In this document: positions 129 to 46,996 of the stretch, piece by piece
How positions within the stretch are numbered: the first letter of the stretch is position 1
Layout: every line of letters begins with the position of its first letter
IMG/VR virus record: IMGVR_UViG_3300036715_000269
Coordinates: 1 to 47,016 of that record
Reading direction: 5' to 3' (one strand)
Source of the DNA: a virus
DNA: 47,016 nucleotides
Notes under the pieces: generated by a model
The model's input: the letters and a program-made list of their open reading frames with translations, nothing else
What the model was told of the DNA's origin: nothing
Database searches by the model: none
Translations under genes and position numbers: made by a program

Positions 129-148
129 GCAGGGTCGTGAGACCCTGC
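129..148 (-). terminator. Hairpin with U-tract in the dpdA leader
   Basis: A perfect 8-bp stem (GCAGGGTC/GACCCTGC) with a 4-nt loop is followed on the minus strand by TTTT. It lies between folE and dpdA, just downstream of a predicted -10 box. It could terminate transcripts running out of folE, or form a 5' hairpin on the dpdA mRNA. Confidence 0.55.
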
Positions 149-157: not shown

Positions 158-186
158 ATTATAACGATCGTCAACTTAATCAGCAA
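158..186 (-). promoter_or_regulatory. Sigma70-like promoter for dpdA-clamp-polB
   Basis: Minus strand TTGCTG-17-TATAAT, with the -35 inside the end of folE (181-186) and the -10 at 158-163. It faces dpdA across the circle junction. The predicted start, about 151, places the hairpin at 148-129 at the very 5' end of the RNA. Confidence 0.6.
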
Positions 187-1093
187 GACGGAGAAACTCG
201 GAACGGGTCTGAGCTTCGTCCTTGATAACGCCGCGAAGAGCTGTGGTTATCGTGTGGTGGCCCTGCTGGCAGATGCCTCGCGATTCCATGCACAGGTGAC
301 GCGCCTTGACCAGTACGCCCACGCCCAACGGCTGGAGGTGTTCTACCAATGCGTCAGCAATCTGATCGGTGAGTCGCTCCTGCACTTGCAAGCGGCGAGC
401 AAACATATCCGCCAAGCGCGACAGCTTGCTCAGGCCCACAATCTTGCCGTTCGGGATGTAAGCGATACTGACGGTTCCAAAGATAGGCGCGAGGTGGTGC
501 TCGCAGTGCGAATAGATGGGGATGTCTTTGACGATAACCATCTGGTCATACTTCTCTGCACCGTCTTCGAACACCTTGAGCAGCGAGCCCGCGTCCTTGC
601 TGTATCCGCTGCACCAGTGGCGCCACGCTTTGGCCACACGGGTGGGAGTTTCCAGCAAGCCTTCACGGGTTGCATCCTCGCCGATGAACTGGAGCAGACG
701 TGTGATGTTGTTCTCGAACGAACCTGCTGCATCCTGCTCCCAAGGGAACACGACCCATTGACCGCCGTAGAGCTTGCCCTCACGCTTGTCAATCAGCGCG
801 AAGAAAGGCTTGCCAGGATGCTCATCACACAGTTGATCGCAGGTGGCACCACTGTCGATCAGGTCGTCAATGAAGATGTTTGCATCAGCAGGAGTATCAA
901 CGAGCAGCAAGCCGGGCACCAGCGGGCCCAGCAGGTAGGCAACGGGAACGCCGCCACGTGGTACTGCATACGCTGCCAAACGCTGCCCAGCGGGGCGATT
1001 GCGCCCCCACTGCTCGGCGTACTGGTTGATCTGCTTTGCGAGTGCGGCAGCAAGGGCGCCGACTGCTTCATGGGTGAGGGTAATCTGTTTCAT
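176..1093 (-). CDS. folE: Phosphoribosyltransferase-GTP cyclohydrolase I fusion (FolE)
   Basis: 305 aa, two domains. Residues 1-~120 look like a type I phosphoribosyltransferase: PRGG at 45-48, the PRPP-binding motif IFIDDLIDSGAT at 73-84, and WVVFPWE at 113-119, resembling the purine-binding end of xanthine-guanine PRTase. Residues ~125-305 are GTP cyclohydrolase I with the zinc site SHCEHH (195-200) and Cys268 in CMESRG. FolE converts GTP to dihydroneopterin triphosphate, the first step towards preQ0. It is the last gene of the queE/gat-queC/queD/folE run and starts 9 bases after queD. FolE is normally about 180-220 aa, so the N-terminal domain is an addition. Seen: both motif sets. Inferred: the PRTase acts on guanine and feeds GTP to FolE. 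An unrelated base substrate is possible. Confidence 0.9.
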   Translation of the reverse strand: MKQITLTHEAVGALAAALAKQINQYAEQWGRNRPAGQRLAAYAVPRGGVPVAYLLGPLVPGLLLVDTPADANIFIDDLIDSGATCDQLCDEHPGKPFFALIDKREGKLYGGQWVVFPWEQDAAGSFENNITRLLQFIGEDATREGLLETPTRVAKAWRHWCSGYSKDAGSLLKVFEDGAEKYDQMVIVKDIPIYSHCEHHLAPIFGTVSIAYIPNGKIVGLSKLSRLADMFARRLQVQERLTDQIADALVEHLQPLGVGVLVKARHLCMESRGICQQGHHTITTALRGVIKDEAQTRSEFLRLAD

Positions 1094-1102: not shown

Positions 1103-1561
1103 TTAGATGTGGAAAGAGGCGGAGCACTTTGCAGTCTCCTCGATACGAACGGAGGTGAGCGTGACACCAGTGCCCTCGAGCTGCTGTGGCCCAATGACTT
1201 CAACCAAGTGGCGGGCCATGTTCTCGGCAGTGGGATTGAACGGGGTGAAGACAATGGACTCCGCAAACATCAAATGGGAGTCATTTCGATGTGTATCACC
1301 AAGAGCATCACATGCCGCATTCATAACAGGGTCATCTTCCCATGCCAGGAACTTGTGATCCCAATTGTTCTCAACCCACATGCACAGCTTTTCTTTGATA
1401 ACACCGAAGTCAATCACACGCCCGACCGTGTCCAGCTCACCAGCTTCACAGACGAAGTGGATACGGTAGTTGTGGCCGTGCAGGTGACGGCACTTGTTCT
1501 CGTGACCGACTACACGGTGACCCGTGCTGATGTCGTGATAGCGTTCCGCAGTTTGTTTCAT
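1103..1561 (-). CDS. queD: 6-carboxytetrahydropterin synthase QueD
   Basis: 152 aa, the full length of a bacterial QueD. It converts dihydroneopterin triphosphate to 6-carboxy-5,6,7,8-tetrahydropterin, the second step of preQ0 synthesis. The zinc ligands are visible as His15 and the HLHGH motif (His28, His30), with the catalytic Cys24 just before. WDHKF near residue 67 and the PTAENMA segment are also family features. Its ATG overlaps the stop of gat-queC as ATGA, implying translational coupling. Confidence is high because of motif order, length and pathway neighbours. Confidence 0.93.
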   Translation of the reverse strand: MKQTAERYHDISTGHRVVGHENKCRHLHGHNYRIHFVCEAGELDTVGRVIDFGVIKEKLCMWVENNWDHKFLAWEDDPVMNAACDALGDTHRNDSHLMFAESIVFTPFNPTAENMARHLVEVIGPQQLEGTGVTLTSVRIEETAKCSASFHI

Positions 1562-2931
1562 GCTGATTCCTTATATTCAATTACTTCAGGGAGACCGTTA
1601 ATTTCAAAAGCCTTGCGACGCATGTAGCACGGGCCGCAGGTGCCACAGTGCAGTTCGCCAGCACGGTAACAGCTCCAGGTGAGGTGCATCGGGGCGCCAA
1701 TCTCGTTTCCGAGCGCCACGATTTCATGTTTCATAAGGTTGCCAACGGGCATGATAACCCGCATCCGCTTCCCATCACCAACGGCGAACGGTAAGAGGTC
1801 ATTAAACCGAGCAATGAACTCAGGTTCGTTGTCAGGGTAGGCACCAGCTTCCTCGAGGTTGTTCCCGAGGACGATGGTATCGATGCCGCGTGCTTCCGCA
1901 AAGGCAGTGGCCACACTGAGTAGCAGCAAGTTCCGCGCTGGCACCCATTCGTAAGCAAACTCTGCACCAGCTTCACCGCCTGCGACTTTGCTGTCAGGGT
2001 CGAGCAACGGTGAGTCATCCTTGCGATACACGGGGAGCGGGAACAGGGTCAAATCTGCACCGAGTTCCGCTGCGACTGCTTCAATCGCTTTGACTTCAGG
2101 TGCTTCAGCGCGGCTACCGTACAGGAAGTGAATCAGGTGGATGCTCATACCGAGCTCCTTCTGTGCATACGCTGCACTCACCACACTGTCAAGACCTCCG
2201 CTGCATACCACGAGCGCACGTTCACCCTGGACGGGGTCTGTGTAAAGCGTACCGGACGACATGCGGGACAGGTCGAAACGTGCCGCTGTATAGGGTGTCA
2301 ACATACGGGGAGCCCACTGCTTGGGCAGGTAGTCCCGCGAGCTTGCAAAGAACAGACCGAACTCGGTTTCAATCATCCAGATTGGACGGTAGTTCGCAGC
2401 GACGTAGATCGCATCGGTTTCGTCTTTGTGCGTCGCGAGGATCGCATAGCTGCCCTTGAGCTTGCAAACCACATCCAGGAAAGCCTGCCCCGTGGGCGCA
2501 CTGCGGGCCAGCTGCTCGGCGATCGCTGCACTGTCAATGCTAGTGGGAAGGCTACCCGTGCGAAGGCCCTTGTCGTTGGCAATGGTGCCGTTATGCACCA
2601 CGGACCAGCCGCCATCGCTGTAAGGTTGCTGATCGGACAGACGCTTCTCCAGGACGTACTCGGTAGTCGGTTCGGCTCGCAGGTTGCAGATCACCGTCGC
2701 CGACTCGCACAGCTTGGAGAGTGCAGGGGGAACCGTGCCTTCGCCGTTGCTACGCTTGACGTCATAATGGGCCAGCGGTTCGCTTTCACCGCTGGAGTTG
2801 ATGACGAACCCGCGACCGTCACGACCACGTTCATGGCTGTGGTGCCAGATGTGTTTCAAGATCGCATTGACTTGTTCCCGCTTCTGGTGCGTGTCAATGC
2901 GCTGCACCAGTGCGCCTATGATTGCACACAT
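1558..2931 (-). CDS. gat-queC: Glutamine amidotransferase-QueC fusion (Gat-QueC)
   Basis: 457 aa. The N-terminal ~230 residues form a class II (Ntn) glutamine amidotransferase domain: Cys2 directly after Met is the expected nucleophile, with CNLRAEPT near 82-89 and VVHNGTIAND near 111-120. The C-terminal half is QueC, which makes preQ0 from carboxydeazaguanine: PP-loop SGGLDS at 244-249 and a C-terminal zinc site with CGTCGPC (last Cys near 436). Plain QueC is about 230 aa. The Gat-QueC fusion is known from archaea, where it converts preQ0 in tRNA to archaeosine, and from phages such as Enterobacteria phage 9g, whose DNA contains dG+. I infer the same final amidation of DNA-bound preQ0 here. 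Its ATG shares one base with the queE stop (TAATG). Confidence 0.92.
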   Translation of the reverse strand: MCAIIGALVQRIDTHQKREQVNAILKHIWHHSHERGRDGRGFVINSSGESEPLAHYDVKRSNGEGTVPPALSKLCESATVICNLRAEPTTEYVLEKRLSDQQPYSDGGWSVVHNGTIANDKGLRTGSLPTSIDSAAIAEQLARSAPTGQAFLDVVCKLKGSYAILATHKDETDAIYVAANYRPIWMIETEFGLFFASSRDYLPKQWAPRMLTPYTAARFDLSRMSSGTLYTDPVQGERALVVCSGGLDSVVSAAYAQKELGMSIHLIHFLYGSRAEAPEVKAIEAVAAELGADLTLFPLPVYRKDDSPLLDPDSKVAGGEAGAEFAYEWVPARNLLLLSVATAFAEARGIDTIVLGNNLEEAGAYPDNEPEFIARFNDLLPFAVGDGKRMRVIMPVGNLMKHEIVALGNEIGAPMHLTWSCYRAGELHCGTCGPCYMRRKAFEINGLPEVIEYKESA

Positions 2932-3650
2932 TAAGCCACCTCAATAATTTTATGGACCTGCAATTGCAGGGTGAAACCGTTAATCATAACGGAACGAACG
3001 CACGCCTGGAGGTTGGCAGCATTGACCGTGCTGTCCTTGTCGTCGCAGGGTTGCAGATAGACCGGACCAAAGAACCCGTCATGGGGACGTGCCACGTGCG
3101 GGCTTGCACTGTGGTCAAGCGCACGCAAGGGAAGCCCATCAGCGTGGATGCTATCATGCGCCATGACATACTTGTAGGCAGCGATCAACGGGATCAGCTC
3201 GCGATTCACAAGACCTGTCTTCGGGCTGCAAACGATGAAGCACTTGTTCTTCTCGAACAGGTTGAGAGAACACATCTCTGCGAATCCGATGGTGGGCGGT
3301 GCGAGCGTTCCGTTCGTTTCAATCTGCACCGTGTAACCAGCGCCAAGCAGTGCAGCAACGAGCGGGTGAATGTTCTGGCGGAAGGGTTCGCCACCCGTAA
3401 TGACCACAAGGCTCGGGGCTTGCTTCTGCTCTTGCACGAACTCAAGGATGCCAGCGGGACTAGACGCCCATCGGTTGCTGGTGTAGTCGGTATCGCAGGC
3501 GGGGCATTGCAGGTTACATCCGGCGAGGCGGACAAACACAGCGGAGTGACCAGTGAAAGGGCCTTCGCCCTGGATGGTGTGGAAGACCGAATGGACTTGC
3601 ACAATGCCGTCAGTATCAAGACAGCGTTTTTCGATGCTCTGAGTATTCAA
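2931..3650 (-). CDS. queE: 7-carboxy-7-deazaguanine synthase QueE
   Basis: 239 aa radical SAM enzyme converting carboxytetrahydropterin to 7-carboxy-7-deazaguanine. The cluster-binding motif is CX3CX2C at Cys45, Cys49 and Cys52 (GCNLQCPACD). The QueE-type GEGP appears at 28-31 and the SAM-binding TGGEP near residue 85. Length fits the family. It is the first gene of the queE, gat-queC, queD, folE run, 93 bases downstream of the preceding gene, with its own predicted promoter and a strong leader hairpin in that gap. Confidence 0.92.
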   Translation of the reverse strand: MNTQSIEKRCLDTDGIVQVHSVFHTIQGEGPFTGHSAVFVRLAGCNLQCPACDTDYTSNRWASSPAGILEFVQEQKQAPSLVVITGGEPFRQNIHPLVAALLGAGYTVQIETNGTLAPPTIGFAEMCSLNLFEKNKCFIVCSPKTGLVNRELIPLIAAYKYVMAHDSIHADGLPLRALDHSASPHVARPHDGFFGPVYLQPCDDKDSTVNAANLQACVRSVMINGFTLQLQVHKIIEVA

Positions 3651-3693: not shown

Positions 3694-3719
3694 GCCGCCC
3701 CTGCACCAGTAGGGGCGGC
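3694..3719 (-). promoter_or_regulatory. Strong GC hairpin in the queE leader
   Basis: Perfect 9-bp inverted repeat (GCCGCCCCT/AGGGGCGGC) around an 8-nt loop, between a TATAAT box and the queE start. No U-tract follows, so it is not a standard terminator. It would form at the first bases of the queE transcript and may protect the mRNA or tune translation. Confidence 0.55.
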
Positions 3720-12020: not shown

Positions 12021-12688
12021 GACAGCCCCTTGAATGCAGCAATTGAGAAGGGAACGATCGGCGTAACCAGTTCCAGCATGGCTTCCGCATAGACGCGGAT
12101 TTCCTTCTGTGCGTGCTCATGCAAGCGCAAGCGAAGGAAGTGGAACAGGTTATGCAGATCGACGGTGGCGAACATGCGGGAATAAGTTGAGCACGGAAGC
12201 ACAGCACGAGCCAGCTCACGTGGGCAACCTTGCGCCAATAGTTCCTTATAGAGCGCGAATGCGTCCAGCATAGCCTTCCGCATGTAGCTCTGCATCAGCA
12301 ATGCTTGCGGGTGCTGTGCGTCGGTTCGCATCTGCTTGTTCGATGTGCTTTGCTCGGTGATGTCGTACAGCTCGGGAACGTAGAACTCTTCCGGGAGCTC
12401 GCTGTAACGTGCGCTCACTTCGTTGTAAGACCACGTCCGGTGACGGTGCCACTGGCGAAACACGAACAGCGGTGCCTTGACTTCAAACGTGAATGTCACA
12501 GCTTCGAATGGACTGGTGTGACGGTTCTTCAGCAGGTATGAAATAAGCTTCTCGTCCTTGCCTTCGTCCTCACCCGTGCGCCAGTCAGCGTCATAGCTCA
12601 CCCGTGCAGCGCGGACGATGGACAGATCGCTACCCATGTGATCAACAAGGCGCACCAGCCCGTGATCCAATACTTTGATTTCGCTCAT
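12017..12688 (-). CDS. thyX: Flavin-dependent thymidylate synthase ThyX
   Basis: 223 aa, the normal ThyX length. The signature RHRTxSxNExSxRYS is at about 82-96 (within HRHRTWSYNEVSARYS). The enzyme methylates dUMP to dTMP using methylenetetrahydrofolate and FAD. It is linked to dCMP deaminase and MazG in the same run. Its gene overlaps both neighbours by ATGA, so translation is coupled. Confidence 0.95.
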   Translation of the reverse strand: MSEIKVLDHGLVRLVDHMGSDLSIVRAARVSYDADWRTGEDEGKDEKLISYLLKNRHTSPFEAVTFTFEVKAPLFVFRQWHRHRTWSYNEVSARYSELPEEFYVPELYDITEQSTSNKQMRTDAQHPQALLMQSYMRKAMLDAFALYKELLAQGCPRELARAVLPCSTYSRMFATVDLHNLFHFLRLRLHEHAQKEIRVYAEAMLELVTPIVPFSIAAFKGLS

Positions 12689-13119
12689 GTTGCCTCACCT
12701 GCTTTCTTTGCCTTTGCAGGCAACACAATTTCGAGGGCCGGCGAACCGGGCTTAACGATCAACGCTTGGTCAAATAGCTGGCGCTGCTCTTCCGTCAGCG
12801 TGCGATACTCCTTCAGCACGAGCGACGGTTTGTACTGCACCATATCATCCGAGCGAATACCTGCTTCTGCGAAGCGCGTCTTGAGCGCACCAAAGGCACC
12901 AGGATCAATTTCGCGGTTGATCGTGTGCTTACCCTTGAGGATCCAGCCGTCCGCGAGCGGTGCGCTATTGGTGCCCTCTGTGGGCGACGGGAAGTATGCA
13001 CCAAAAATCTTCTGCCGAAGCAGCATTTCAGACGCCTTAATCTTCTTGAGCTGCTCTTGCAAGCGATACCACTCAGCGAGGTCTTCTTGCGATACAGTGT
13101 TGGCGGGGATTGTGGTCAT
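12685..13119 (-). CDS. Conserved phage protein of unknown function
   Basis: 144 aa. It resembles a protein often found in phage metabolic blocks: a helical N-terminus with EQLKKIKASEMLLR, then a core with LADGWILKGKHTINREID, and an end with TLTEEQRQLFDQAL followed by KPGSPALEIVLP. I do not know its role. ATGA overlaps with mazG upstream and thyX downstream tie it to nucleotide metabolism or replication genes. Confidence 0.8.
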   Translation of the reverse strand: MTTIPANTVSQEDLAEWYRLQEQLKKIKASEMLLRQKIFGAYFPSPTEGTNSAPLADGWILKGKHTINREIDPGAFGALKTRFAEAGIRSDDMVQYKPSLVLKEYRTLTEEQRQLFDQALIVKPGSPALEIVLPAKAKKAGEAT

Positions 13120-13496
13120 TGCTGCACCTCGCCAAAGAGCTCCCCTTGCACGGATTCTACCTTGTCAGCGCGGGCCGCAGCGTGTTCGTCGGAATACTTG
13201 TCAGGGTAACGCTTGCGGAGCTTGTCGATGTTCGCTTCGCAAATGTCCGACAAGTCCAAGCCTAGTGCAGTTGCACCGAGCGCCACGTACCACATCAAGT
13301 CACCGAGTTCCTCTTTCAGGTTCTCTGTGTCAAGAGATTGGTTATAGGCGATATGCTTTTTCAGCGTGTCAGCAATCTCGCCACCTTCGCTTGCGATGCC
13401 TAGTTGGGCATGTTGCAAGTCTTGCACCGGAGTCGGGAAGGGTCGCGAGGTGCGTCCTGCCAACTTCTGATACTCATTCAACCCTATCACTTTCAT
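13116..13496 (-). CDS. MazG-like nucleotide pyrophosphohydrolase
   Basis: 126 aa, all-alpha NTP-PPase. Metal-binding motifs: EGGEIAD near 37-43 and EELGDLMWYVA near 62-72, then NIDKLRKRYPDKYS. The family hydrolyses (d)NTPs to monophosphates; phage versions may remove unwanted nucleotides. It is the first gene after the promoter at 13533-13561. Confidence 0.85.
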   Translation of the reverse strand: MKVIGLNEYQKLAGRTSRPFPTPVQDLQHAQLGIASEGGEIADTLKKHIAYNQSLDTENLKEELGDLMWYVALGATALGLDLSDICEANIDKLRKRYPDKYSDEHAAARADKVESVQGELFGEVQQ

Positions 13497-27242: not shown

Positions 27243-27772
27243 TTGACCGTAATACACTCAACCGCGACATCCGCAAGGTGATAGCCCTTTGCACAGGGTT
27301 CGCACCTGCTGAGGTGCGCCCAGCAAACCAGCTAGGGGGCGCTACAGGCGATCGCTGGGCCACTGTCCTGATCCTAGCGCAGAAGAGCCAAGGCGACGCC
27401 CATACGTGGGCTAACGTGCCCAGCAGTCCTACAAAGCAAGTGACCGAGACAAGTGATAACCATGTGGCCATCACGGTGTCGGTGCAATTCTTTCGGCAAG
27501 ACGCGATAATGTCTGCCAACAAGTTACGGGACAGGATTACCCTGACTTCTGCATTGCAGTTGATGCAGAGCCTCGGCCTAGGTTACATTCGGTGCAGTGA
27601 GCCGAAAGACCTTTCCGCGGTCGTGAATGCGAACTGGGAGCAGCGAGCAGTCTGCGAACTTGACTTCTATGTTGTGAGCACAGAAGTTGAGAACGTGGAT
27701 ACGTTCGGAACCTTCACGTTCAATGTATCAACTGGAACAAATCTTCCTAACTACGAGGTGATCGAGCCATGA
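27239..27772 (+). CDS. Neck / tail terminator-like protein
   Basis: 177 aa starting at GTG 27239 (GTGA overlap; GAAAGG upstream). It contains IRKVIALCTGFAPAEVRPAN, VSVQFFRQDAI and LDFYVV near the end, like the neck proteins encoded before sheath genes of myoviruses. It would cap the tail tube and sheath. ATGA overlap with the sheath gene. Confidence 0.72.
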   Translation: MIDRNTLNRDIRKVIALCTGFAPAEVRPANQLGGATGDRWATVLILAQKSQGDAHTWANVPSSPTKQVTETSDNHVAITVSVQFFRQDAIMSANKLRDRITLTSALQLMQSLGLGYIRCSEPKDLSAVVNANWEQRAVCELDFYVVSTEVENVDTFGTFTFNVSTGTNLPNYEVIEP

Positions 27773-29235
27773 CTATACCTGTCAATAAGGTCGTAGATGT
27801 CAAAATCTACACGTCCCCGATCTTTCCGCAGCGTAAGGGCTTCGGTCTGCTGCTGATTATCGGGACTTCCACTGTTCTACCCGTTGCTGAACGGATGCGC
27901 GAATACAGCGACATCACGTCCATCGCAACCGACTTCGGTACGTCCTCCGAAGAGTACAAGGCCGCACTGGCGTTCTTCAGCCAGGCACCTGCACCGACCA
28001 CACTGCGGATCGGCCGTCGCTTTGTGACTGCTGTGTCTGGTGAAAACTTGGGTTCACTCAACTACACCAACACGATCGCAACCTGGAACGCTGTCACCGC
28101 TGGCAGTATGCAAGTCGCAATCGATGGCGTGAATAAAACGCTGTCCGCGATGAACTTCACTACCGACACCACGCTCGCTCTTGTTGCTGCCCGCATTCAG
28201 TCCGCACTGGTTGCCGCTGGTGCAGTTGGCGCCACGGTGGTGTTCCTGGGCAATCGCTTTGTGATCCGCTCCGGTACTACTGGCGCCACCTCGACGGTGG
28301 GCTACACCAGCACGACTGGCGCTGGCACCTACATCGGAACGATGCTGGGCACCGACGCAAGCGTTAGCCCGATTCTGTCTGCTGGTGCAGTGGCTGAAAG
28401 CGCCGCAACCTGCCTGACGAATATGCAGAACTATTCGACTGCATGGTATGGCGTGACCTTCACCAATACTGCATCCGTGCAGGACTTGAAAGACGCGGCT
28501 GCATGGTGCGAAGCACTGGTGAAGATCTTCGGCTATACCACGTCGGACATCAACTCCAAAGACCCGCTCCAGACTACCGACATCGGGTACTACATGAACT
28601 CGATGTTGTACCGTCGCACGTTCGGTATCTTTGATTCCACCGACCCTTATGCAGTGTGCAGCGCAATGGCCCGAGCCTTTGTGGTCAATTTCAACGAGCA
28701 GAACAGCACGCTGACCCTCAAGTTCAAAACCCTGCCGGGCTGCTCGCCTGAGAGCCTTACGTCCAACGACAAGACGGCGCTCGACGCGAAAAAGCTGAAC
28801 TATTACACGCGATTCGGCGACAGCGCAATGCTGGCGGAAGGCGTTATGGCGAACGGTGTGTTCTTCGACGAAGTGCATGGTCTGGATTGGTTGCAGAACG
28901 CAATTGAAACGAACGTCTTTGGCTTCCTCTACACTCGCACGACGAAGGTTCCGCAGACCGATCGCGGTATGCAGCTGATCGTCCAGCAGGTGGAAAAGGC
29001 GCTCGCTGACGGTGTGAATAACGGTCTGCTGGCTCCGGGCACCTGGAACGGCGATGAGTTCGGTCAGTTGAAGACTGGTGACTTCCTCAAGGCTGGTTAC
29101 TATGTCTATGCGGCCCCAATGGCCACACAGAACAGTAGCGATCGCCAGGCGCGCATTGCACCTCCCATCCGTGTCGCCGCCAAGGGCAGTGGAGCAATCC
29201 ACTTCGTCAGCGTCGGTGTTACGTTCGACCGCTAA
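27769..29235 (+). CDS. Tail sheath protein (DUF3383)
   Basis: 488 aa. The start (VNKVVDVKIYTSPIFPQRKG), LRIGRRF near 85 and the C-terminal KAGYYVYAAPMATQNSSDRQARIAPPIRVA-type segment identify DUF3383, the contractile sheath of AP22-like and related phages. This is the main evidence for a contractile tail. Residues ~95-200 form a Thr/Gly/Ala-rich inserted domain likely to face outwards. Confidence 0.88.
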   Translation: MTIPVNKVVDVKIYTSPIFPQRKGFGLLLIIGTSTVLPVAERMREYSDITSIATDFGTSSEEYKAALAFFSQAPAPTTLRIGRRFVTAVSGENLGSLNYTNTIATWNAVTAGSMQVAIDGVNKTLSAMNFTTDTTLALVAARIQSALVAAGAVGATVVFLGNRFVIRSGTTGATSTVGYTSTTGAGTYIGTMLGTDASVSPILSAGAVAESAATCLTNMQNYSTAWYGVTFTNTASVQDLKDAAAWCEALVKIFGYTTSDINSKDPLQTTDIGYYMNSMLYRRTFGIFDSTDPYAVCSAMARAFVVNFNEQNSTLTLKFKTLPGCSPESLTSNDKTALDAKKLNYYTRFGDSAMLAEGVMANGVFFDEVHGLDWLQNAIETNVFGFLYTRTTKVPQTDRGMQLIVQQVEKALADGVNNGLLAPGTWNGDEFGQLKTGDFLKAGYYVYAAPMATQNSSDRQARIAPPIRVAAKGSGAIHFVSVGVTFDR

Positions 29236-39261: not shown

Positions 39262-39579
39262 ATGCAAGACTATGTAAGCGAGCTCCTAGGCATCAAGATG
39301 GCGACGTTGATCGCTTCGTTCCTTGGTGCTGTGGTCAGCCTAAGTTATGTTCCAGAACTAACGCGAGTGCGTCTATTCACCAGCGTGTTCGTAGGTACTT
39401 CTGTCAGCGTGTATGGCGTGCCCCTTGCGTCACATTACATGGGGATCCCGGATTCGCTTGAGCGAGCGATCGCTTTCTTCGCAGGTTTGCTCGCCATGCG
39501 AATGGTGCCCGTATTGTTCCATCTTGTTGATCGGTTCAAGAGCGTGCATCTCCCGTCAGTACCTGACGAAAAGGAGTGA
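39262..39579 (+). CDS. Holin-like membrane protein
   Basis: 105 aa from ATG 39262 (AAGG upstream). Three hydrophobic segments (about 13-32, 39-60, 68-85) and a short charged tail, matching class I holins. It directly follows the hydrolase gene and precedes another small membrane protein. Confidence 0.7.
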   Translation: MQDYVSELLGIKMATLIASFLGAVVSLSYVPELTRVRLFTSVFVGTSVSVYGVPLASHYMGIPDSLERAIAFFAGLLAMRMVPVLFHLVDRFKSVHLPSVPDEKE

Positions 39580-39581
39580 TC

Positions 39582-39884
39582 ATGGAACTCGTGCTCAACA
39601 TTGTGCGAACGCTCGCTTGCTTGTATGTGATCTATGTTTCACTGCTGTGCATCAACCGAATGTCGCGCTGCACGAATCACGTCGTCCGCACCGCATTCGT
39701 TCTGTTGGCAGGTGGTGCGCTCTCCGAGATTGTTTGGATATGGGAATTCGGGCATGTTAGACCCCTGCTCGGGTTCAGCATCTACGAACTGTTTGACACA
39801 GCGTGGATCGTCGGGGTCGCAATCTATGTCGGCATAAGTCAGTGCCGCAGAATCCAAGGAGTCGGAAATGAGACTTGTACTTGA
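39582..39884 (+). CDS. Second small membrane protein (holin/antiholin candidate)
   Basis: 100 aa from ATG 39582, chosen for AGGAG five bases upstream. Three hydrophobic segments. With the preceding gene it forms a pair of membrane proteins of similar size, as in holin/antiholin systems. The role is inferred only from topology and position. Confidence 0.6.
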   Translation: MELVLNIVRTLACLYVIYVSLLCINRMSRCTNHVVRTAFVLLAGGALSEIVWIWEFGHVRPLLGFSIYELFDTAWIVGVAIYVGISQCRRIQGVGNETCT

Positions 39885-40344
39885 GCGCAAGACTTACACA
39901 GCGCAATCCACCGTCGGAGAACTGTCCATTGACGGGAAGTTCCAATGCTACACGCTCGAAGACGTGGTGCGCCAAGACGGTGTCAAGGTGTATGGCAAGA
40001 CCGCGATCCCCTCGGGCGCTTACGACGTAACCGTAACCATGAGCCCCAAGTTCGGAAAGCTGATGCCGCTGGTCAATGACGTCCCGAATTATGCAGGGGT
40101 ACGCATTCACCCAGGTAACGACGCCGAAGATACGGAAGGTTGCATCCTGGTGGGCAACACCGTCGCGGAAAACTTCATTGGTGAGTCCCGTGCAGCGTTC
40201 GCGGAGCTGTACCCGCTGATCCTGGACGCCAAGCATAAGGGTGAAACCGTTACCCTCGTGATCCACGACAACATTCCGGCAGCAGACCAGCTCGCAGAGG
40301 CAACACCTGCCAAGCCCTGGGCAGGCAAAGAGAAGAAGGCTTAA
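39868..40344 (+). CDS. DUF5675-like protein, possible murein-acting enzyme
   Basis: 158 aa. The core GVRIHPGNDAEDTEGCILVG resembles the active site of L,D-transpeptidase-like folds (His, then TxGC), and TAIPSGAYDVTV fits DUF5675. AAGGAG lies 7 bases before the ATG at 39868. It sits within the lysis genes, so cell-wall hydrolysis or remodelling is plausible; activity is unproven for the family as far as I know. Confidence 0.68.
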   Translation: MRLVLERKTYTAQSTVGELSIDGKFQCYTLEDVVRQDGVKVYGKTAIPSGAYDVTVTMSPKFGKLMPLVNDVPNYAGVRIHPGNDAEDTEGCILVGNTVAENFIGESRAAFAELYPLILDAKHKGETVTLVIHDNIPAADQLAEATPAKPWAGKEKKA

Positions 40345-40346
40345 CC

Positions 40347-40715
40347 ATGTTCGGTCAATTGAAAGCATACCTGTGGCAGGCCCTGTGCGTGGCGCTAGGG
40401 GCCGCGCTGCTGTACTCGGGGTGGCACTGGTACGGAGCGCACCACGATCTCGGCCTGTGCCGGCAGCAGTTGGCCCAAGAGCAGCTTACCAGCGAGCGCC
40501 TCCGTGGTGAAATCACCGTGCAGAGCGCAAAGGTGGAGGCTTTGGGCAAAGAACAGGTCGAACGCGATAAGCGACTGACCCTTGCCTTGCAGCTTGCTAG
40601 TTCGAAGAGCAAGACGGCTGACGCTGCCCTGAAGCGTGCGGAAGGTGCTAAGGCGCAGACATGCGCGGAGGCGATGCCTGTGGTCAACGATATCTTAAAG
40701 GGGTTACAACCATGA
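40347..40715 (+). CDS. Inner-membrane spanin (Rz-like)
   Basis: 122 aa. One N-terminal membrane segment (about 9-27) followed by a long periplasmic helix with heptads (QQLAQEQLTSERLRGEITVQ), the i-spanin layout. It pairs with the lipoprotein at 41055-41312 to fuse inner and outer membranes at lysis. Unusually, a secreted nuclease gene separates the two. Confidence 0.8.
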   Translation: MFGQLKAYLWQALCVALGAALLYSGWHWYGAHHDLGLCRQQLAQEQLTSERLRGEITVQSAKVEALGKEQVERDKRLTLALQLASSKSKTADAALKRAEGAKAQTCAEAMPVVNDILKGLQP

Positions 40716-41053
40716 AGCTGACTTTCGCTGGAAAATTCTGGCTCACCTATGTCCTCGCGCTGGTGCTGTGTGCAGTTGCATTCAGTTCGCACGCTGCCAC
40801 CTGTGACATCAAACGAGACAAGAACGGTCGCATCTATCGCAGTGCGTCCGCTGTGGTGCATTTCAAGAAGGCGCACCCTTGCCCCGCTAACGGTACGACG
40901 AAGGGAGCCTGTCCAGGCTATGTCGTTGACCACATTGTTCCGCTGTGCGCCTGTGGGCAGGATGCACCCGCCAACATGCAATGGCAGGACTTGAAAACCA
41001 GCAAGGCCAAGGACGTGCTCGAGCGGAAGCAGTGCGGCGGGAAAGGGGACTGA
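40712..41053 (+). CDS. Secreted HNH endonuclease
   Basis: 113 aa from ATG 40712 (ATGA overlap with the spanin). A signal peptide (LTYVLALVLCAVAFSSHA, cleavage after SHA) precedes a mature ~85-aa domain with VDHIVPLCACG, NMQWQDLKTSKAKD and four to six cysteines. The DHIVPL-x(n)-N-x(n)-K order is an HNH nuclease. It would be exported to the periplasm, where disulfides can form. Perhaps it digests DNA at lysis or blocks incoming DNA. Confidence 0.82.
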   Translation: MKLTFAGKFWLTYVLALVLCAVAFSSHAATCDIKRDKNGRIYRSASAVVHFKKAHPCPANGTTKGACPGYVVDHIVPLCACGQDAPANMQWQDLKTSKAKDVLERKQCGGKGD

Positions 41054-41054
41054 C

Positions 41055-41312
41055 ATGCGAGCTCTTGTTCTACTCGCTGCACTGGTGCTCGCGGGATGCG
41101 CCAGCACTGCACCAGTCATCACCGAAGTCAAAGTCCCTGTCAGTGTGCCCTGTGTGAAACCCGAACAGATTCCACAGCGCCCGGACTACGAGACGCCCAA
41201 GCTCACCCCTGATGCTACCGACGGGAACAAGGTGCTCGCGCTTGCACGCGACTGGGCACGCTCCCGAGGGTACGAAGGCAAGCTGGAAGCTATTGTCTCG
41301 GAATGCCGTTGA
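41055..41312 (+). CDS. Outer-membrane lipoprotein spanin (Rz1-like)
   Basis: 85 aa. Lipoprotein signal with lipobox LAGC (Cys15), a Pro/Val-rich mature start (VPVSVPCVKPEQIPQRP) and a helical end (LARDWARSRGYEGKL). Fits o-spanins, though it is not nested in the Rz gene. Last rightward gene; its end overlaps the convergent minus-strand gene by 23 bases. Confidence 0.75.
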   Translation: MRALVLLAALVLAGCASTAPVITEVKVPVSVPCVKPEQIPQRPDYETPKLTPDATDGNKVLALARDWARSRGYEGKLEAIVSECR

Positions 41313-41481
41313 CGCAGGCCTGGCGGTAGTCCCCGCGATAGTCGGGCCACTTCCCGTGATACACAGCGTCGCAGTATTCCGCCTCCTGCCTCTGTGCTTC
41401 CTCCAGATCGCTTGTACCAGCAAAGCCCAGGGCCAGCAGAATGAACGCAAGCCCGAGGGCTGCTTTGACAGTGTTGCTCAT
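41290..41481 (-). CDS. Small single-pass membrane protein
   Basis: 63 aa. ATG 41481 is supported by ATGA overlap with the upstream gene. One hydrophobic segment (about 7-23), then a charged C-terminal part with CDAVYHGKWPDYRGDYRQAC. Unknown function. Its 3' end overlaps the spanin gene tail to tail. Confidence 0.6.
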   Translation of the reverse strand: MSNTVKAALGLAFILLALGFAGTSDLEEAQRQEAEYCDAVYHGKWPDYRGDYRQACVNGIPRQ

Positions 41482-41741
41482 GATAGGTATCCTTGATTGA
41501 TCAACCAGCCTTTGAAGGAATCGACGTTGCCCCAATGTACCTTCCCGCGATGCTGCCACTTGCCGGAGCTCGGGTAGTACATGACAGCGCCATACTGGCT
41601 GTCAATGCGGAACACGTTCTTTGACTGCTCCCGTGCAGGGATGCCCATCTGTTCCAGCTTCCCAATGTTCACCACTGCACGCGCTTCGCGCTTCGAGGAA
41701 GGCCGCGAGGGCGCGTTCATGTCGTCAGCCATATCGCCCAT
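41478..41741 (-). CDS. Unknown 87-aa protein
   Basis: SD AAAGG precedes ATG 41741. The C-terminal ~50 residues (NVFRIDSQYGAVMYYPSSGK, then WGNVDSFKGWLINQG) look like a compact alpha/beta fold seen in small phage proteins. No function assigned. Confidence 0.7.
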   Translation of the reverse strand: MGDMADDMNAPSRPSSKREARAVVNIGKLEQMGIPAREQSKNVFRIDSQYGAVMYYPSSGKWQHRGKVHWGNVDSFKGWLINQGYLS

Positions 41742-41752
41742 TTTGTTTCCTT

Positions 41753-42463
41753 TCAGTTGAGCCGTTTGAAGTCTTTACCACTGGATGTCACTTGCTGGTT
41801 CAACGACACGGTCTTGCCGTAGTCGCGTCCGTCGTGGAACGCACCAGCCCGCAGAGAGTTGTCAGCGCGGGACTTTGATGTGGTCAATGCTAGGCCTGCC
41901 TGCTCTAGCCACTTGTCATTTGCAGCAGCTTCGCGCTTATGCACGCCCACCAGCACGAGGGCAGTTCCCGGAGTGCTTTCTGTGTCCTGCTGAAGCATCT
42001 GTTCAACACGCTTGCGGACGCTATCCACTGTCCCGACGCAGAAACTGCGACCGTGCGGGCTGGTGGGCGACTTGTAACGTGCAGTCGCTTCGCGCTTGAC
42101 AGACTTGATCAGGTACTCGCTCATATAGCGGGCGGTGATCACATTGCTTTGTCGACCGACAAAACAATGCTTGTCCTTACCGCTTGTTCCGGTGGAGCTG
42201 TAGAAGTATTTGCAGAAGAACAGCTTGGCGACCGCATGGGCAAGACTGCGAGCCCACTTGTCCGCACTGATAACGATGTCTTGGCGCTCGCGCACCTCGT
42301 TAGACTGGTCGCCTGGCAGGTCGCTGATGGACAGGTTATGCTTCGCCAGCAGGTTGTAAGCCATGCGGAGTGCAGTCTCGCGCTCACCTTCGGTTGCTGC
42401 TGAGTCATTGCCCAGGGCAATCATCTTCTTGATACGCTCCAGAACCTTGTCTTCTACTGTCAT
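41753..42463 (-). CDS. DUF2786 domain protein
   Basis: 236 aa. The N-terminus (VLERIKKMIALGNDSAATEGERETALRMAYNLLAKHNLS, residues ~7-45) is the DUF2786 helical domain; the rest is a basic alpha/beta region with HCFVGRQSNVITARYMSEYL. Common in phages and bacteria, function unknown. It is first in its transcription unit, behind a promoter with a long inverted repeat. AGGAG lies 7 bases before ATG. Confidence 0.82.
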   Translation of the reverse strand: MTVEDKVLERIKKMIALGNDSAATEGERETALRMAYNLLAKHNLSISDLPGDQSNEVRERQDIVISADKWARSLAHAVAKLFFCKYFYSSTGTSGKDKHCFVGRQSNVITARYMSEYLIKSVKREATARYKSPTSPHGRSFCVGTVDSVRKRVEQMLQQDTESTPGTALVLVGVHKREAAANDKWLEQAGLALTTSKSRADNSLRAGAFHDGRDYGKTVSLNQQVTSSGKDFKRLN

Positions 42464-42555: not shown

Positions 42556-42999
42556 TTACGCTGCCAACCGACGCTCGGGATGGTGACGACTCTCGTTCCG
42601 CTTTGCCACCTTCGCCTTGGCGGTGCGGCGCTCGACAGAACGGTGCTCCACCACTACCGCGCCCAGCTTGTTGAACTTGCGCCACTGGTAGTATTCAATC
42701 CGAGCATTGTTTGCGTTCCACCCTTGCTTCTCAGCAAGCGCCAACACGTATTGCAGCGTAGGCAGCTCGCCACCTTTGGCCAATACCTTATCAAGGGCAC
42801 TCCACACAGCGTCGCACCTGCCGCCCGCTTTGGGCCTGCGGACACCGTTTTGTACAGCGCGATCAGTTTCCGGGGCAGGTACTGCTGCACCAGCCAGGAG
42901 TGCATGGACTGCATCATGCACAGCAGCGGGAAGGGCTTCGGCTACTTTTTTGACGACAGCAGCTTCGAGAGCGGTTTCGTTGATCTGTTGGGTCTTCAT
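42556..42999 (-). CDS. NGVRRP-domain protein
   Basis: 147 aa from ATG 42999, chosen because AAAGGAG lies 6 bases upstream, while for the ATG at 43005 it would touch. Helical N-terminus (LEAAVVKKVAEALPAAV), then the shared domain at about 50-108: NGVRRPKAGGRCDAVW, GWNANNARIEYYQWRKFNKLG, and a basic C-terminal tail. Like its relatives at 3744 and 5254 it is unrecognised. It has its own promoter with an inverted repeat at the start site. Confidence 0.78.
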   Translation of the reverse strand: MKTQQINETALEAAVVKKVAEALPAAVHDAVHALLAGAAVPAPETDRAVQNGVRRPKAGGRCDAVWSALDKVLAKGGELPTLQYVLALAEKQGWNANNARIEYYQWRKFNKLGAVVVEHRSVERRTAKAKVAKRNESRHHPERRLAA

Positions 43000-43010
43000 G
43001 ATCATCTCCT

Positions 43011-43119: not shown

Positions 43120-45120
43120 TTATGTAGGGGTAGGCTTACACGCATATCCGATGTCTTCCAGCATACGGTTGGCCTCTCGCTCATACCAGTCATAATCAAT
43201 GTCTTGGGGAAACACCTTGGGCAAGTCCATCAGAGGCACTGCACCCTCGGAACGGGGCACCTTGTTCCCGCTGTCCGCATACACAATTTCACCCTCTTCG
43301 CCTGCTTTGTAGTACCAGCGAATGGACTTGCCCAGGAACGTGCCATCCTTCACCGCGCCACCCTTGACAGTACGCACGGACACGAACTTACGAATGTCCG
43401 TGCAGCCGCGAATCGTCCGGTGCAGTGGTGCGCCTTTGGTAAGCAGTGCAATAACTGCATCTACACATATCTGGTTCGTCGGGTTCTTGTGAAGCTGGTC
43501 GGAGGGCTTCTCTGGACTAGCATAGGCGCCTTTCGTCTTAACCTTGCCGTCGGGCTTCACTGCGATGTAGTTATTCACGTCACGGGAATAGACTGCCGTG
43601 TAGGTTGTTTCCTCAGTCTCGAACGCTGTGTCAATTTCCCACTGCTTGATCACTGCTTCCATTTCAGCGTGACGCACCTTGGGGCACTTGATCACGATGC
43701 CGTCTGTGTTTGCGCTGACCACATTGATTCCACGTATCTCTAGGCGCTCAATCAGCATAAGCAGCGACAGCTGACCCGTCACCGTTACCTGAATCAGCAG
43801 GTCAGGGGAGTACAGGACAGACCACTTGCTTCCGAGCTTGCCGAAGGAACCGTTAATCGTGATCTTCAAGGAGTCAGCGACGACCTTGTTGCCTGACCGC
43901 TTGGCGTCCAGACGCTTGTTCACAAGCTGCTGATAGACGCGAAGGAAGTTTGTGCTGAGGTGATGCGGGTACAGGCCCAAGTTCAAAATGATTGCAGGGT
44001 AGTAAGAGGTCACGTCACGGTCAACGATGATAGTGTGGTCATCCGCTCTGTGTGCTGTGCATTGCTCGGAGCTATGCAGCCCACCAATTCCCATTCGATA
44101 CACGCCACCAGCGATCTGAAGTTTGAGCTCTTTCAGCTCCGCAGGCATACCAATGTTCCCATCCTCGCTCACAATGAAGTCTGCACGGCGCACAATGTCC
44201 AGCGCCCAATTCATAAGCGGTGATTCGTACTTAATGAACGCGGGCACCCTGTAACGGTAGCGCGTCCCAGGCTCGATCGTTGGGCGCTGCACCCTGCACC
44301 CGTTCAGCTTTTCGATCTCCTGCGCAATGACCGACTCAGCAATCTGTGCATCGGACTTGGAACGCAGATCAACCCCGTATTCGTTGCTGAGGGTTTCGCG
44401 GAGCGAAATCTGTTCCTTCAAGGACTCATGTAGAATAGCGGTGTTCGTCAAGTCATTCACGCAATACCAGCGAACGATCGCAATCTGGTCTTCGGTGAGC
44501 AGTACCTCGGGATGGAACGGTAAGTCCTGCATCCGTGGTGCGTGCAAGCGTCCGCCGTAGATCTTCAAGCTGGCCCGCAGTGGTGCCACCTCAATCAGAT
44601 CGATGTGGTCTGGTCGGATGCTCTTTACTTTGAACCCGCGAAGCACGTCCGAGGGGCGCGTTCCATTCACAATGATGTCGTTCGTTGCTTGCTTGAGCTG
44701 GGCGCAATTCTTACCAGCCAGCGCAAGCGCCAGAATTGGTAAGTCATAGCCCCAGCTATTGAACCCCACGAGGCAGAAGTTATTCACAATCCATTGCAGC
44801 TTGTTCGCATCGAAATCACTTGTTCGCGTGCGCTCAAAGTAGATCACCTTCCCTGTCACAAGGGAAGTGAAAGCGATCAGGAAATAATTGACATAACACT
44901 CGATGTCGAATATGAACCGTTCGCGACGTGCAGCAGCTATCGGCAGCTCCCAATCCTCGAACATCGCCACGCGGAACGCTCGTGCTTCTTCCAGGCCGGG
45001 CAGGTAGTCTGGGCTCTCCCAAGTGCGGGCAGGTGGTGTCCTCTTGGGCTTCTCCAGCTTAGGAGGTTTCGGGGGCGGTGTATCGTCCCAGAAGAACCCC
45101 GCCATGTCTGCTCTTGCCAT
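43120..45120 (-). CDS. Family B DNA polymerase with 3'-5' exonuclease
   Basis: 666 aa, short for the family. Exonuclease: FDIECY (71-76), FNSWGYDLPIL, and WYCVNDL. Polymerase: motif A DVTSYYPAIILN near 370, motif B KITINGSFGKLGS near 425, motif C ANTDGIVI near 475 (NTDG instead of the usual DTDS). The N-terminal ~40 residues are Pro/Lys-rich. It replicates the phage genome. Its ATG shares a base with the clamp-like gene's stop (TAATG), and both follow dpdA in the same unit. The NTDG variant occurs in other phage polymerases and should be active. Confidence 0.92.
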   Translation of the reverse strand: MARADMAGFFWDDTPPPKPPKLEKPKRTPPARTWESPDYLPGLEEARAFRVAMFEDWELPIAAARRERFIFDIECYVNYFLIAFTSLVTGKVIYFERTRTSDFDANKLQWIVNNFCLVGFNSWGYDLPILALALAGKNCAQLKQATNDIIVNGTRPSDVLRGFKVKSIRPDHIDLIEVAPLRASLKIYGGRLHAPRMQDLPFHPEVLLTEDQIAIVRWYCVNDLTNTAILHESLKEQISLRETLSNEYGVDLRSKSDAQIAESVIAQEIEKLNGCRVQRPTIEPGTRYRYRVPAFIKYESPLMNWALDIVRRADFIVSEDGNIGMPAELKELKLQIAGGVYRMGIGGLHSSEQCTAHRADDHTIIVDRDVTSYYPAIILNLGLYPHHLSTNFLRVYQQLVNKRLDAKRSGNKVVADSLKITINGSFGKLGSKWSVLYSPDLLIQVTVTGQLSLLMLIERLEIRGINVVSANTDGIVIKCPKVRHAEMEAVIKQWEIDTAFETEETTYTAVYSRDVNNYIAVKPDGKVKTKGAYASPEKPSDQLHKNPTNQICVDAVIALLTKGAPLHRTIRGCTDIRKFVSVRTVKGGAVKDGTFLGKSIRWYYKAGEEGEIVYADSGNKVPRSEGAVPLMDLPKVFPQDIDYDWYEREANRMLEDIGYACKPTPT

Positions 45121-46073
45121 TACTGCCTCATCCCGATAATTGCGCCACGTATTCTGTCACCGAAGAACATGCACGGATTAGGATAGCATGACCAGTCAAC
45201 GGACGTCGCTGTGCCTTGCAGTAGGTTCAGCATCTCAATCTGATAGACGCCACTGTGGTGAAACCCGTCAATCTCGTAGCCCGCACCTTCGGTCTCTTCG
45301 TCATGGGTGCATACACGCCCACCCTTGAACAACACTCTACCCATCTTGTCAACGAAGGGCCTGATTGTCTTAAGACCTTCAAAAAGTCGCGGGTCAATTG
45401 GGGTGGGGTTGCTTTCACGGTTCAGCACTTTGGTGAGGTCGGGCCACTTGGTTTCGAATAGCTGTGTCCGGATCCACCTGTTCCCGCTGTAATGGAACGT
45501 AATCGCATTGTCGGTCATCTGTGCATACTGCGGAGCTTCGTTAATGCGGAGCATCTCTTTGATCGCTGCACGGGGTACGTTGAGCGGCTTTGGAAAGGTA
45601 GCGCCTGTCCAGTATTCAACGAGGACGATATTGTTCGTTGCGAATGCTGACTGGCCCAGCAGCAGGACACCGTTCGACCATGGGCGCGAAGCATCGTCCC
45701 CGATAAAGGGTGCAACGGTTTTCAGGGCGCGGAGCATTGCTTCACCTTCGATAGCCACATGCTCTCCCTCGGGCATGACGTGCGGCGTGTCACCCTCAAC
45801 GCAATCAACAAAGGCCTTGAACTTACCGCTCTTCACAGACAGGCGCCCCGCTGGTGTAAGCGACAGGGTCACCGTCTCATTACAGTTCGCGATCGCCTTG
45901 ACAAGAGACTCAGCTTTGGGCTTGCACGCAATGTCAAAGGGGATAGGGCTGCACAGCGCGAGCATCCCGTTATAACCGCGGACAGTTCCGTTCTCGATAA
46001 CGAAGTGCGTCAGTGCAGGTAAAAAGTCTTTCTTGGCGACAGCGCCTTGAACAAACTTGAGGGATGTAAGCAT
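45120..46073 (-). CDS. Sliding-clamp-like (DnaN-fold) protein
   Basis: 317 aa. Spaced features follow a beta-clamp: SLKFVQGAVAKKDFLPALTHFV at the start, WIRTQLFETKWPD where clamps have the loop before the third domain, and the end CMFFGDRIRGAIIGMRQ matching the terminal 'MPMRL' strand. Length is a little under bacterial clamps (~365). It would tether the coupled polymerase. Similarity is visible but not strong, so structure prediction should confirm it. Confidence 0.6.
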   Translation of the reverse strand: MLTSLKFVQGAVAKKDFLPALTHFVIENGTVRGYNGMLALCSPIPFDIACKPKAESLVKAIANCNETVTLSLTPAGRLSVKSGKFKAFVDCVEGDTPHVMPEGEHVAIEGEAMLRALKTVAPFIGDDASRPWSNGVLLLGQSAFATNNIVLVEYWTGATFPKPLNVPRAAIKEMLRINEAPQYAQMTDNAITFHYSGNRWIRTQLFETKWPDLTKVLNRESNPTPIDPRLFEGLKTIRPFVDKMGRVLFKGGRVCTHDEETEGAGYEIDGFHHSGVYQIEMLNLLQGTATSVDWSCYPNPCMFFGDRIRGAIIGMRQ

Positions 46074-46996
46074 TAGAAGAGCTCCTGGATATGTGCAGTC
46101 AATTGTTCATAGTTGTTCTTTGCGTTCATCATTGCATTCACAACACCGTAGGCCCATAAATTATACGCTGCACGCGATTCATAGACTTGAGATAATCGTT
46201 CGTATGTGAACCCCTGCGACTCCAGCGTCTGCAGAACGAAGTCCTGCTCGATGGGTGATAGTGTGGTTGCATGTTGCCCAGCGTCGTGCCTGGAGGGCGA
46301 CTTCTCGGATACGGACAGCGGGCCCCATTCAGGGGTCACAATGCTGCCGAATGCAGCAGACTGAATCCAGGAGGACGAGTCAACGCTGTACCACGGATAA
46401 CGCTCCATGATTGGAATCGCTGTGATACCGAATCCATGTACCTTGAGCCGCGGGCGACCGCTACCGTCCGTGAGGTACTTGTCCCACATACGGTCGAGCC
46501 AGATGCAAAGCTGCTTCGTGGAGCTGCCCACCATACCGCCGAGCGTGATATATTCGTAGTTCTTGACGTAGTGCTCAAGGTAGCGTTCATCCTCACCAGC
46601 GTGGAAGCAGGGGAGAGGCTTTGCTCCGAGCTGCTCCATTGCGAGCTGGTTCTGGTACGTCTTGAGCGGGTCACCAATACCGTCAAGCACGGACGCCATC
46701 ACGACACCGTCTTCGACCCTCCAGAGGTCCATGTTCCGCTTGATATAATCGCAGTACGTGGGCAGGTCAATTTCAACGCCCAAGGTGTATGCAGAGAACG
46801 CTCCCGAGTCCAGGAACACGCTTGCATTGTCTGCTCGCATCTGGTCGATATAACGCTGTGAGCCGATGTAGTGGTACGACTCCAGGATGTGCGGAATGTT
46901 GTGAACGATCTCGCGCTCGCGCTCGTTGAGCTTCAGATAACGGTTCTGCCCGCGCATATACGAGTTCGTATAGACAGCAGCCATGAAGATATTCAA
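46073..46996 (-). CDS. dpdA: DNA guanine-transglycosylase DpdA (TGT-like)
   Basis: 307 aa. FLDSGAFSAY (61-70), then VMASVLDGIGD and YITLGGMVGSS, are the TIM-barrel motifs of phage DpdA enzymes, relatives of tRNA-guanine transglycosylase; the acidic residue of FLDSG would be in the active site. The CxCxxC zinc motif of tRNA enzymes is not visible, as expected for short phage forms. It would exchange guanine in DNA for preQ0. TTG 46996 is the start: GGAGGT lies 6 bases upstream, whereas the next ATG (46984) is too far. The TAA shares a base with the clamp ATG. Confidence 0.85.
   Translation of the reverse strand: MNIFMAAVYTNSYMRGQNRYLKLNEREREIVHNIPHILESYHYIGSQRYIDQMRADNASVFLDSGAFSAYTLGVEIDLPTYCDYIKRNMDLWRVEDGVVMASVLDGIGDPLKTYQNQLAMEQLGAKPLPCFHAGEDERYLEHYVKNYEYITLGGMVGSSTKQLCIWLDRMWDKYLTDGSGRPRLKVHGFGITAIPIMERYPWYSVDSSSWIQSAAFGSIVTPEWGPLSVSEKSPSRHDAGQHATTLSPIEQDFVLQTLESQGFTYERLSQVYESRAAYNLWAYGVVNAMMNAKNNYEQLTAHIQELF

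What the first reader, a model, noticed from the sequence alone, without database searches (positions are those of the whole stretch)
46073..46996. Complete 7-deazaguanine DNA hypermodification pathway: dpdA, folE, queD, gat-queC, queE
All enzymes from GTP to preQ0 (FolE 176-1093, QueD 1103-1561, QueE 2931-3650, QueC inside 1558-2931) and a DpdA-type base exchanger (46073-46996) are present with motifs intact. On the circular map they lie together, interrupted only by a promoter and hairpin. Established for phages such as 9g and CAjan: these genes replace guanines with 7-deazaguanines and give resistance to restriction. The modification of this phage is inferred.
Basis: partly seen in the sequence, partly recalled or inferred. 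Interest (0 to 1): 0.85.

Follow-up and report, generated by a model that had tools for sequence, protein, structure and literature searches.

The report
Phage guanine-modification operon, two-domain FolE
This phage carries a complete, known set of genes for replacing guanines in its own DNA with altered bases that block restriction enzymes, and its first enzyme carries a fused, apparently undescribed purine-salvage-like domain that may recycle the guanine thrown out of the DNA.

Summary
The window is a complete phage genome with 127-bp identical ends. It encodes folE, queD, gat-queC and queE plus dpdA, in the gene order of phage 9g; the 46073 ORF and its TTG start hold up. DpdA is 70% identical to 9g DpdA and its model matches solved TGTs and DpdA (Z 17). 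Gat-QueC is 51% identical, full length, to the 9g enzyme that with DpdA gives dG+, so dG+ is the likeliest product. Known pathway, new member.

Residues 1-121 fold like xanthine-guanine phosphoribosyltransferase (Z about 12), with PRPP- and purine-contact residues kept at 91-100% in 96 diverse sequences but without the flexible loop. The fusion recurs in 142 ORFs in the loci held here, mostly beside dpdA; two stand-alone copies sit beside folE or queC. No held paper joins DpdA with a phosphoribosyltransferase. DpdA should release one free guanine per exchange, so I propose salvage of that guanine to GMP; ligand sensing is the main rival. Nothing biochemical is shown. A TATAAT-plus-hairpin element precedes queE and dpdA. 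The virion genes encode a contractile tail, unlike siphoviral Queuovirinae.

The parts
46073..46996 (-). dpdA: 7-deazaguanine DNA transglycosylase (307 aa, TTG start); its start is repeated at 1-107
   Evidence: phrog_887 5e-94; 70% to 9g DpdA; model Z 17.2 to solved DpdA 7ui4 and Z 17.5 to TGT
176..1093 (-). folE ORF: fusion protein PRT-FolE (305 aa)
   Evidence: TIGR00063 above cut-off; AF2 model pLDDT 92.7
731..1093 (-). N-terminal phosphoribosyltransferase-like domain (residues 1-121), XGPRT-like
   Evidence: XGPRT in PDB by profile E 3e-7; Z about 12 to XGPRT; conserved ligand residues
179..712 (-). GTP cyclohydrolase I domain (residues 128-305)
   Evidence: Z 24.7 to M. tuberculosis FolE
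1103..1561 (-). queD: 6-carboxytetrahydropterin synthase-like
   Evidence: phrog_2389 7e-50, PTPS 2e-25
1558..2931 (-). gat-queC: class II glutamine amidotransferase domain fused to QueC
   Evidence: phrog_10428 7e-201; QueC 2e-52, GATase_7 3e-6; 51% to 9g Gat-QueC
2931..3650 (-). queE: radical SAM 7-carboxy-7-deazaguanine synthase (TTG start), CX3CX2C present
   Evidence: phrog_2076 2e-53
129..148 (-). GC hairpin between folE and dpdA, with TTATAAT at 158-164 upstream
3694..3719 (-). GC hairpin before queE, with TTATAAT at 3727-3733 upstream
45120..46073 (-). DNA polymerase processivity factor (clamp), downstream of dpdA
   Evidence: phrog_947 9e-77
43120..45120 (-). family B DNA polymerase
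   Evidence: phrog_1252 2e-222

Best explanation
This is a self-contained operon for post-replicative 7-deazaguanine modification of phage DNA. FolE, QueD, QueE and the QueC half of Gat-QueC make preQ0 from GTP, DpdA swaps a 7-deazaguanine base for guanine in DNA, and the amidotransferase half converts the nitrile to the amidine of archaeosine before or after insertion. The expected mark is dG+ on part of the guanines, which shields the DNA from restriction enzymes. Each exchange should release one free guanine, and each new base costs one GTP. The XGPRT-like domain fused to FolE most likely binds PRPP and a 6-oxopurine and returns guanine to GMP, next to the enzyme that consumes GTP. Shown by sequence and predicted fold: the genes, their families, the fusion, the conserved ligand site. 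Inferred: all activities in this phage, dG+ as product (about 0.65), guanine salvage as role of the fused domain (about 0.45). The confidence given is for the pathway and its role in DNA modification.
For: All enzymes present and in 9g order. DpdA 70% to 9g and 69% to CAjan DpdA; Gat-QueC 51% full length to 9g Gat-QueC. In E. coli, 9g dpdA plus gat-queC gave dG+ in plasmid DNA and EcoRI resistance (PMC6884629). DpdA model Z 17.2 to 7ui4. PRT domain: XGPRT by profile and fold, ligand residues 91-100% conserved, fused to FolE in 77 of 80 viral loci, with dpdA within 4 kb in 65, stand-alone copies next to folE or queC.
Against: No nucleoside or enzyme data for this phage. Gat-QueC is only 51% identical to the tested one, and 9g gat-queC did not replace E. 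coli queC for tRNA queuosine. For the PRT domain: about 22-27 residues holding the XGPRT flexible loop are absent, 9g and CAjan do without the domain, and hosts usually have their own guanine salvage.
Confidence: 0.88

Rival explanations
1. The pathway is active but the main mark is dPreQ0 or dADG rather than dG+, because the amidotransferase domain is weak or acts otherwise.
For: Mixed marks are known, e.g. nt-1 with dPreQ0, dG+ and dADG (PMC6884629).
Against: Gat domain keeps Cys2 and aligns with 9g over its length; Vid5 has dG+ (PMC8306585).
Confidence: 0.25
2. The fused PRT-like domain is a sensor, not an enzyme: it binds PRPP, GMP or ppGpp and adjusts FolE activity.
For: Ligand residues kept while the flexible loop is lost; a PRT-like protein with bound ppGpp is among the fold matches (5vog); domain fused to the first enzyme of the pathway.
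Against: The proposed base-contact residues D80, K103 and W113 are kept too, as expected of an enzyme; no data on regulation.
Confidence: 0.3
3. The fused domain acts on preQ0 or G+ and makes its nucleotide, so that part of the modified base enters DNA through the polymerase.
For: Domain is tied to the preQ0 genes, including copies next to folE and queC.
Against: DpdA makes this step needless; every locus from the PRT scan on a contig above 25 kb has dpdA; no deoxynucleotide steps seen.
Confidence: 0.1
4. DpdA here is a tRNA-modifying enzyme and the operon supports tRNA archaeosine or queuosine, not DNA modification.
For: It has the TGT fold, and tRNA TGTs score as high as DpdA in the structural comparison.
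Against: 70% identity to 9g DpdA, which modified DNA and did not replace E. coli tgt (PMC6884629); it sits next to clamp and polymerase genes.
Confidence: 0.03

Closest known systems
Enterobacteria phage 9g dG+ pathway (Nonagvirus, Queuovirinae; PMC6884629)
   Same: Same gene order queE, gat-queC, queD, folE, dpdA, clamp, polB; DpdA 70%, Gat-QueC 51%, FolE domain 64% identical
   Different: 9g FolE is 204 aa without the PRT domain; an extra gene lies between queE and gat-queC in 9g; 9g is a siphovirus
Pseudomonas phages NP1 and Quinobequin-P09 (Nipunavirus)
   Same: Same operon including the PRT-FolE fusion (297 aa) and Gat-QueC; DpdA 76%, Gat-QueC 64%, PRT-FolE 69% identical
   Different: 58-kb genomes; their modification is predicted (PMC6884629), and the fusion is annotated only as GTP cyclohydrolase
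E. coli / Y. pestis xanthine-guanine phosphoribosyltransferase (Gpt)
   Same: Fold (Z about 12) and PRPP- and purine-contact residues
   Different: Phage domain lacks residues matching about 58-84 (flexible loop) and is fused to FolE
Caudoviricetes sp. ctfzr933 (MW202455)
   Same: Nearest listed relative of the virion module; tail sheath 93% aa identical
   Different: No DpdA or FolE; annotated with thymidylate and hydroxymethyl-pyrimidine synthases instead

Membership tests
Phage DpdA (9g type) | Sequence family | tested here: met
   phrog_887 5e-94; 70% to 9g, 69% to CAjan
Phage DpdA (9g type) | TGT fold | tested here: met
   Z 17.2 to DpdA 7ui4, 261 residues, rmsd 3.5; Z 17.5 to TGT
Phage DpdA (9g type) | Conserved Asp residues and the His that distinguishes DpdA from DpdA2 | tested here: met
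   D59, D101, D202 and H183 invariant in the alignments; taking H183 as the published His196 is my reading of the alignment with 9g
Phage DpdA (9g type) | Insertion of a 7-deazaguanine into DNA | not testable with these tools
   needs LC-MS or expression
Bacterial DpdA (NF041059) | NCBI equivalog cut-off | tested here: not met
   16.1 bits against 200
Gat-QueC | Class II amidotransferase domain with Cys2 joined to QueC with SGGxDS and zinc cysteines | tested here: met
   MCAII, SGGLDS, CX7CX2CX2C as in 9g; phrog_10428
GTP cyclohydrolase I (FolE) | NCBI equivalog TIGR00063 cut-off | tested here: met
   219.9 bits against 181.6, for residues 127-303
QueD and QueE (NCBI equivalog models) | NCBI equivalog cut-offs | tested here: not met
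   QueD 67.9 against 89.25; QueE best 84.2 against 200. Phage families phrog_2389 and phrog_2076 match strongly, so they are filed as phage QueD and QueE
XGPRT (Gpt) for FolE residues 1-121 | PRTase fold of the XGPRT kind | tested here: met
   Z 12.1, 111-112 residues, rmsd 2.7-3.1, 25% identity
XGPRT (Gpt) for FolE residues 1-121 | PRPP motif and purine-contact residues | tested here: met
   D76, D77, D80, G82, T84, K103, W113 aligned and 91-100% conserved
XGPRT (Gpt) for FolE residues 1-121 | Flexible loop and NCBI equivalog cut-off | tested here: not met
   XGPRT about 58-84 has no counterpart; 18.6 bits against 138. So it is called XGPRT-like, not XGPRT
Queuovirinae | Replication and deazaguanine gene block | tested here: met
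Queuovirinae | Siphovirus (non-contractile) tail | tested here: not met
   Tail sheath gene 27769-29235 (phrog_205, 1e-122); virion module like MW202455, recorded as a myovirus. Not filed in the subfamily

The most novel reading that the evidence does not exclude
Many deazaguanine phages carry a built-in guanine recycling enzyme: a loop-less XGPRT-like domain fused to FolE that turns the guanine released by DpdA into GMP, closing the purine budget of DNA hypermodification and pulling the exchange forward.
Probability: 0.42. Interest if true: 0.7.

Novelty: new variant of a known kind. Interest (0 to 1): 0.5.

Why it matters
The operon itself adds one more member to a known anti-restriction DNA modification system, here on a contractile-tailed phage. 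The part that is new, as far as the papers that could be searched show, is the PRT-FolE fusion. It is widespread, its ligand site is strongly conserved, and it poses a testable question: where the displaced guanine goes and how the phage pays for thousands of base exchanges per genome. If it is a sensor instead, it would be a control point for FolE in infected cells.

Tried and rejected
Inner ATG (46984) as dpdA start: rejected in favour of TTG 46996 (ribosome-binding site, conserved N-terminus). A classical sigma-70 promoter before dpdA: not found; only the -10-like element is supported. Stand-alone PRT genes beside unfused FolE: none in the loci. Lack of dpdA in 15 short records shows nothing, as they are fragments. 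Cui 2023 (10.1093/nar/gkad657) could not be read, so an earlier mention of the fusion there is not excluded. The FolE tree has weak support; it shows only that the fusion state changed several times (at least 11 changes on the tree, 3 forced by well-supported branches). Sampling for searches used PRT motifs and is biased towards their presence; much less so. Foldseek's listed rows for PRT-FolE showed only FolE; the XGPRT matches came from the VIA second look.

Full report
What is there. The window is a complete virus record of 47,016 bases with an identical 127-bp repeat at its ends, so dpdA at the right end and folE at the left end are neighbours on the circular map. On the minus strand the order is queE, gat-queC, queD, folE, dpdA, polymerase clamp, family B polymerase. 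Family searches confirm every gene.

Pathway. DpdA is 70% identical to 9g DpdA and 69% to CAjan DpdA; Gat-QueC is 51% identical to 9g Gat-QueC over the whole length with Cys2, SGGLDS and the zinc cysteines in place; the gene order equals that of 9g apart from one extra gene there. In E. coli, 9g dpdA with gat-queC put dG+ into plasmid DNA, while CAjan, with plain QueC, carries dPreQ0 (PMC6884629). The DpdA model (pLDDT 89) matches tRNA-guanine transglycosylases and the solved DpdA 7ui4 at Z 17. In alignments of 34 and 31 relatives, D59, D101, H128, H183 and D202 are invariant. I conclude with confidence that this is a 7-deazaguanine DNA modification operon, and with less (about 0.65) that its product is dG+.

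The folE ORF codes for 305 aa, whereas 9g and CAjan FolE have 204 and 196. Residues 128-305 are FolE. Residues 1-121 are a phosphoribosyltransferase-like domain. A profile of 30 such domains finds XGPRT among solved proteins (E 3e-7); 29 of 30 members match NCBI's xanthine phosphoribosyltransferase model (best E 8e-10, the window's own domain far below the cut-off), and 20 match Pfam Pribosyltran. The AlphaFold2 model (pLDDT 92.7) superposes on E. coli and Y. pestis XGPRT with Z about 12 over 111-112 residues, rmsd 2.7-3.1 A, 25% identity in the tightest rows. The alignment places D76, D77, D80, G82, T84, K103 and W113 on XGPRT D88, D89, D92, G94, T96, K115 and W134; that these residues bind PRPP and the purine in XGPRT is established knowledge. 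In 96 sequences below 80% identity they are 91-100% conserved, while the average column's top residue reaches 41%. XGPRT about 58-84, which holds the enzyme's flexible loop, has no counterpart. So the ligand site is kept but catalysis is not certain.

Distribution. A search of IMG/VR with the domain profile gave 80 loci; in 77 the domain is fused to FolE, in 65 dpdA lies within 4 kb, and all loci without dpdA lie on contigs under 25 kb. Of the three unfused cases one is cut by the contig end (L145), one is a separate gene just upstream of folE (L201), and one is a separate gene just downstream of queC (L205). Over all loci held, 142 fused ORFs were counted, some of them the same contig fetched more than once. 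Among isolates the fusion is in the Nipunavirus group, the 42-kb Pseudomonas and Stenotrophomonas phages, and Vibrio phages such as VpKK5, annotated only as GTP cyclohydrolase. On a FolE tree the state changes several times, and L072, inside a mostly unfused group, has a degraded copy, as expected of occasional loss. No paper in the library holds both DpdA and phosphoribosyltransferase, and preQ0 with phosphoribosyltransferase and phage listed only an E. coli queuosine paper. One key paper (Cui 2023) is not held, so priority is not proven.

How it may work. A transglycosylase of this kind releases one guanine per base inserted (established TGT chemistry). The unique genome has 26,033 guanines per duplex; at the 7.55% dG+ measured in Vid5 (PMC8306585) about 2,000 guanines are freed per genome, which for an assumed 100 genomes in 1 fL is 0.3 mM. 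A guanine phosphoribosyltransferase tied to FolE would return this base towards the GTP pool that feeds FolE. This is inference from fold, residues and association. The missing loop and the lack of the domain in 9g and CAjan count against it; a ligand-sensing role is the main rival and a role on the deazaguanine base itself a weaker one.

Regulation. TTATAAT occurs twice in the whole genome on both strands together; both copies are intergenic, on the operon strand, one before queE and one before dpdA, each followed within about 20 bases by a strong GC hairpin. The dpdA element recurs in L007, L008, L009, L018 and L034 with different but still pairing stems, and a similar one precedes queE in L007 and L009; L006, L010 and L012 have another arrangement. 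No -35 hexamer at normal spacing was found. Two transcription starts, one for the synthesis genes and one for dpdA with the replication genes, are plausible; the folE-dpdA hairpin may also end the first transcript.

Genome context. The replication and modification half resembles Queuovirinae, but the virion half codes for a contractile tail: a sheath, and a module related to MW202455. That relative lacks dpdA and folE and is annotated with hydroxymethyl-pyrimidine synthesis instead, which suggests that one virion module is paired with different DNA modification systems. I therefore do not file the phage in Queuovirinae.

Verdict. The core finding is correct and of a known kind. The PRT-FolE fusion makes it a new variant and gives it moderate interest.

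Noticed in passing
window 17000-41000, tail sheath 27769-29235 (+): The virion module encodes a contractile tail, related to MW202455 (sheath 93% aa), while the replication and deazaguanine block is Queuovirinae-like: a module swap between siphovirus-type and myovirus-type phages.
   Followed up: partly
L125 (MW202455) 39541-42211: The nearest virion-module relative lacks dpdA and folE and is annotated with thymidylate and hydroxymethyl-pyrimidine synthases, so the same virion module seems paired with another DNA modification.
   Followed up: partly
window 158-164 with 129-148, and 3727-3733 with 3694-3719, minus strand: The only two TTATAAT copies of the genome stand before dpdA and queE, each followed by a GC hairpin; the element recurs in several relatives.
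   Followed up: partly
window 3744-4307, 5254-5853, 42556-43005, minus strand: Three small proteins of unknown function share a C-terminal domain (NGV[RK]RP...G..C..VW) and match the same PHROG families: a paralogous set near the modification and polymerase genes.
   Followed up: no
L072:4004-4927 (+): A PRT-FolE with the PRT motifs degraded (no RGG, DLVLNTG instead of DDLIDSG), lying among mostly unfused FolE on the tree: perhaps a domain on the way to loss.
   Followed up: no
L126 (MEWP01000016.1, Zixibacteria MAG): A PRT-FolE fusion followed by a dpdA on a contig binned with a bacterium; probably a phage contig or prophage.
   Followed up: no
window 8585-9040, 12017-12688, 13116-13496, minus strand: dCMP deaminase, thymidylate synthase-like and MazG-like pyrophosphatase genes: a nucleotide metabolism set in the same half of the genome as the deazaguanine genes.
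   Followed up: no
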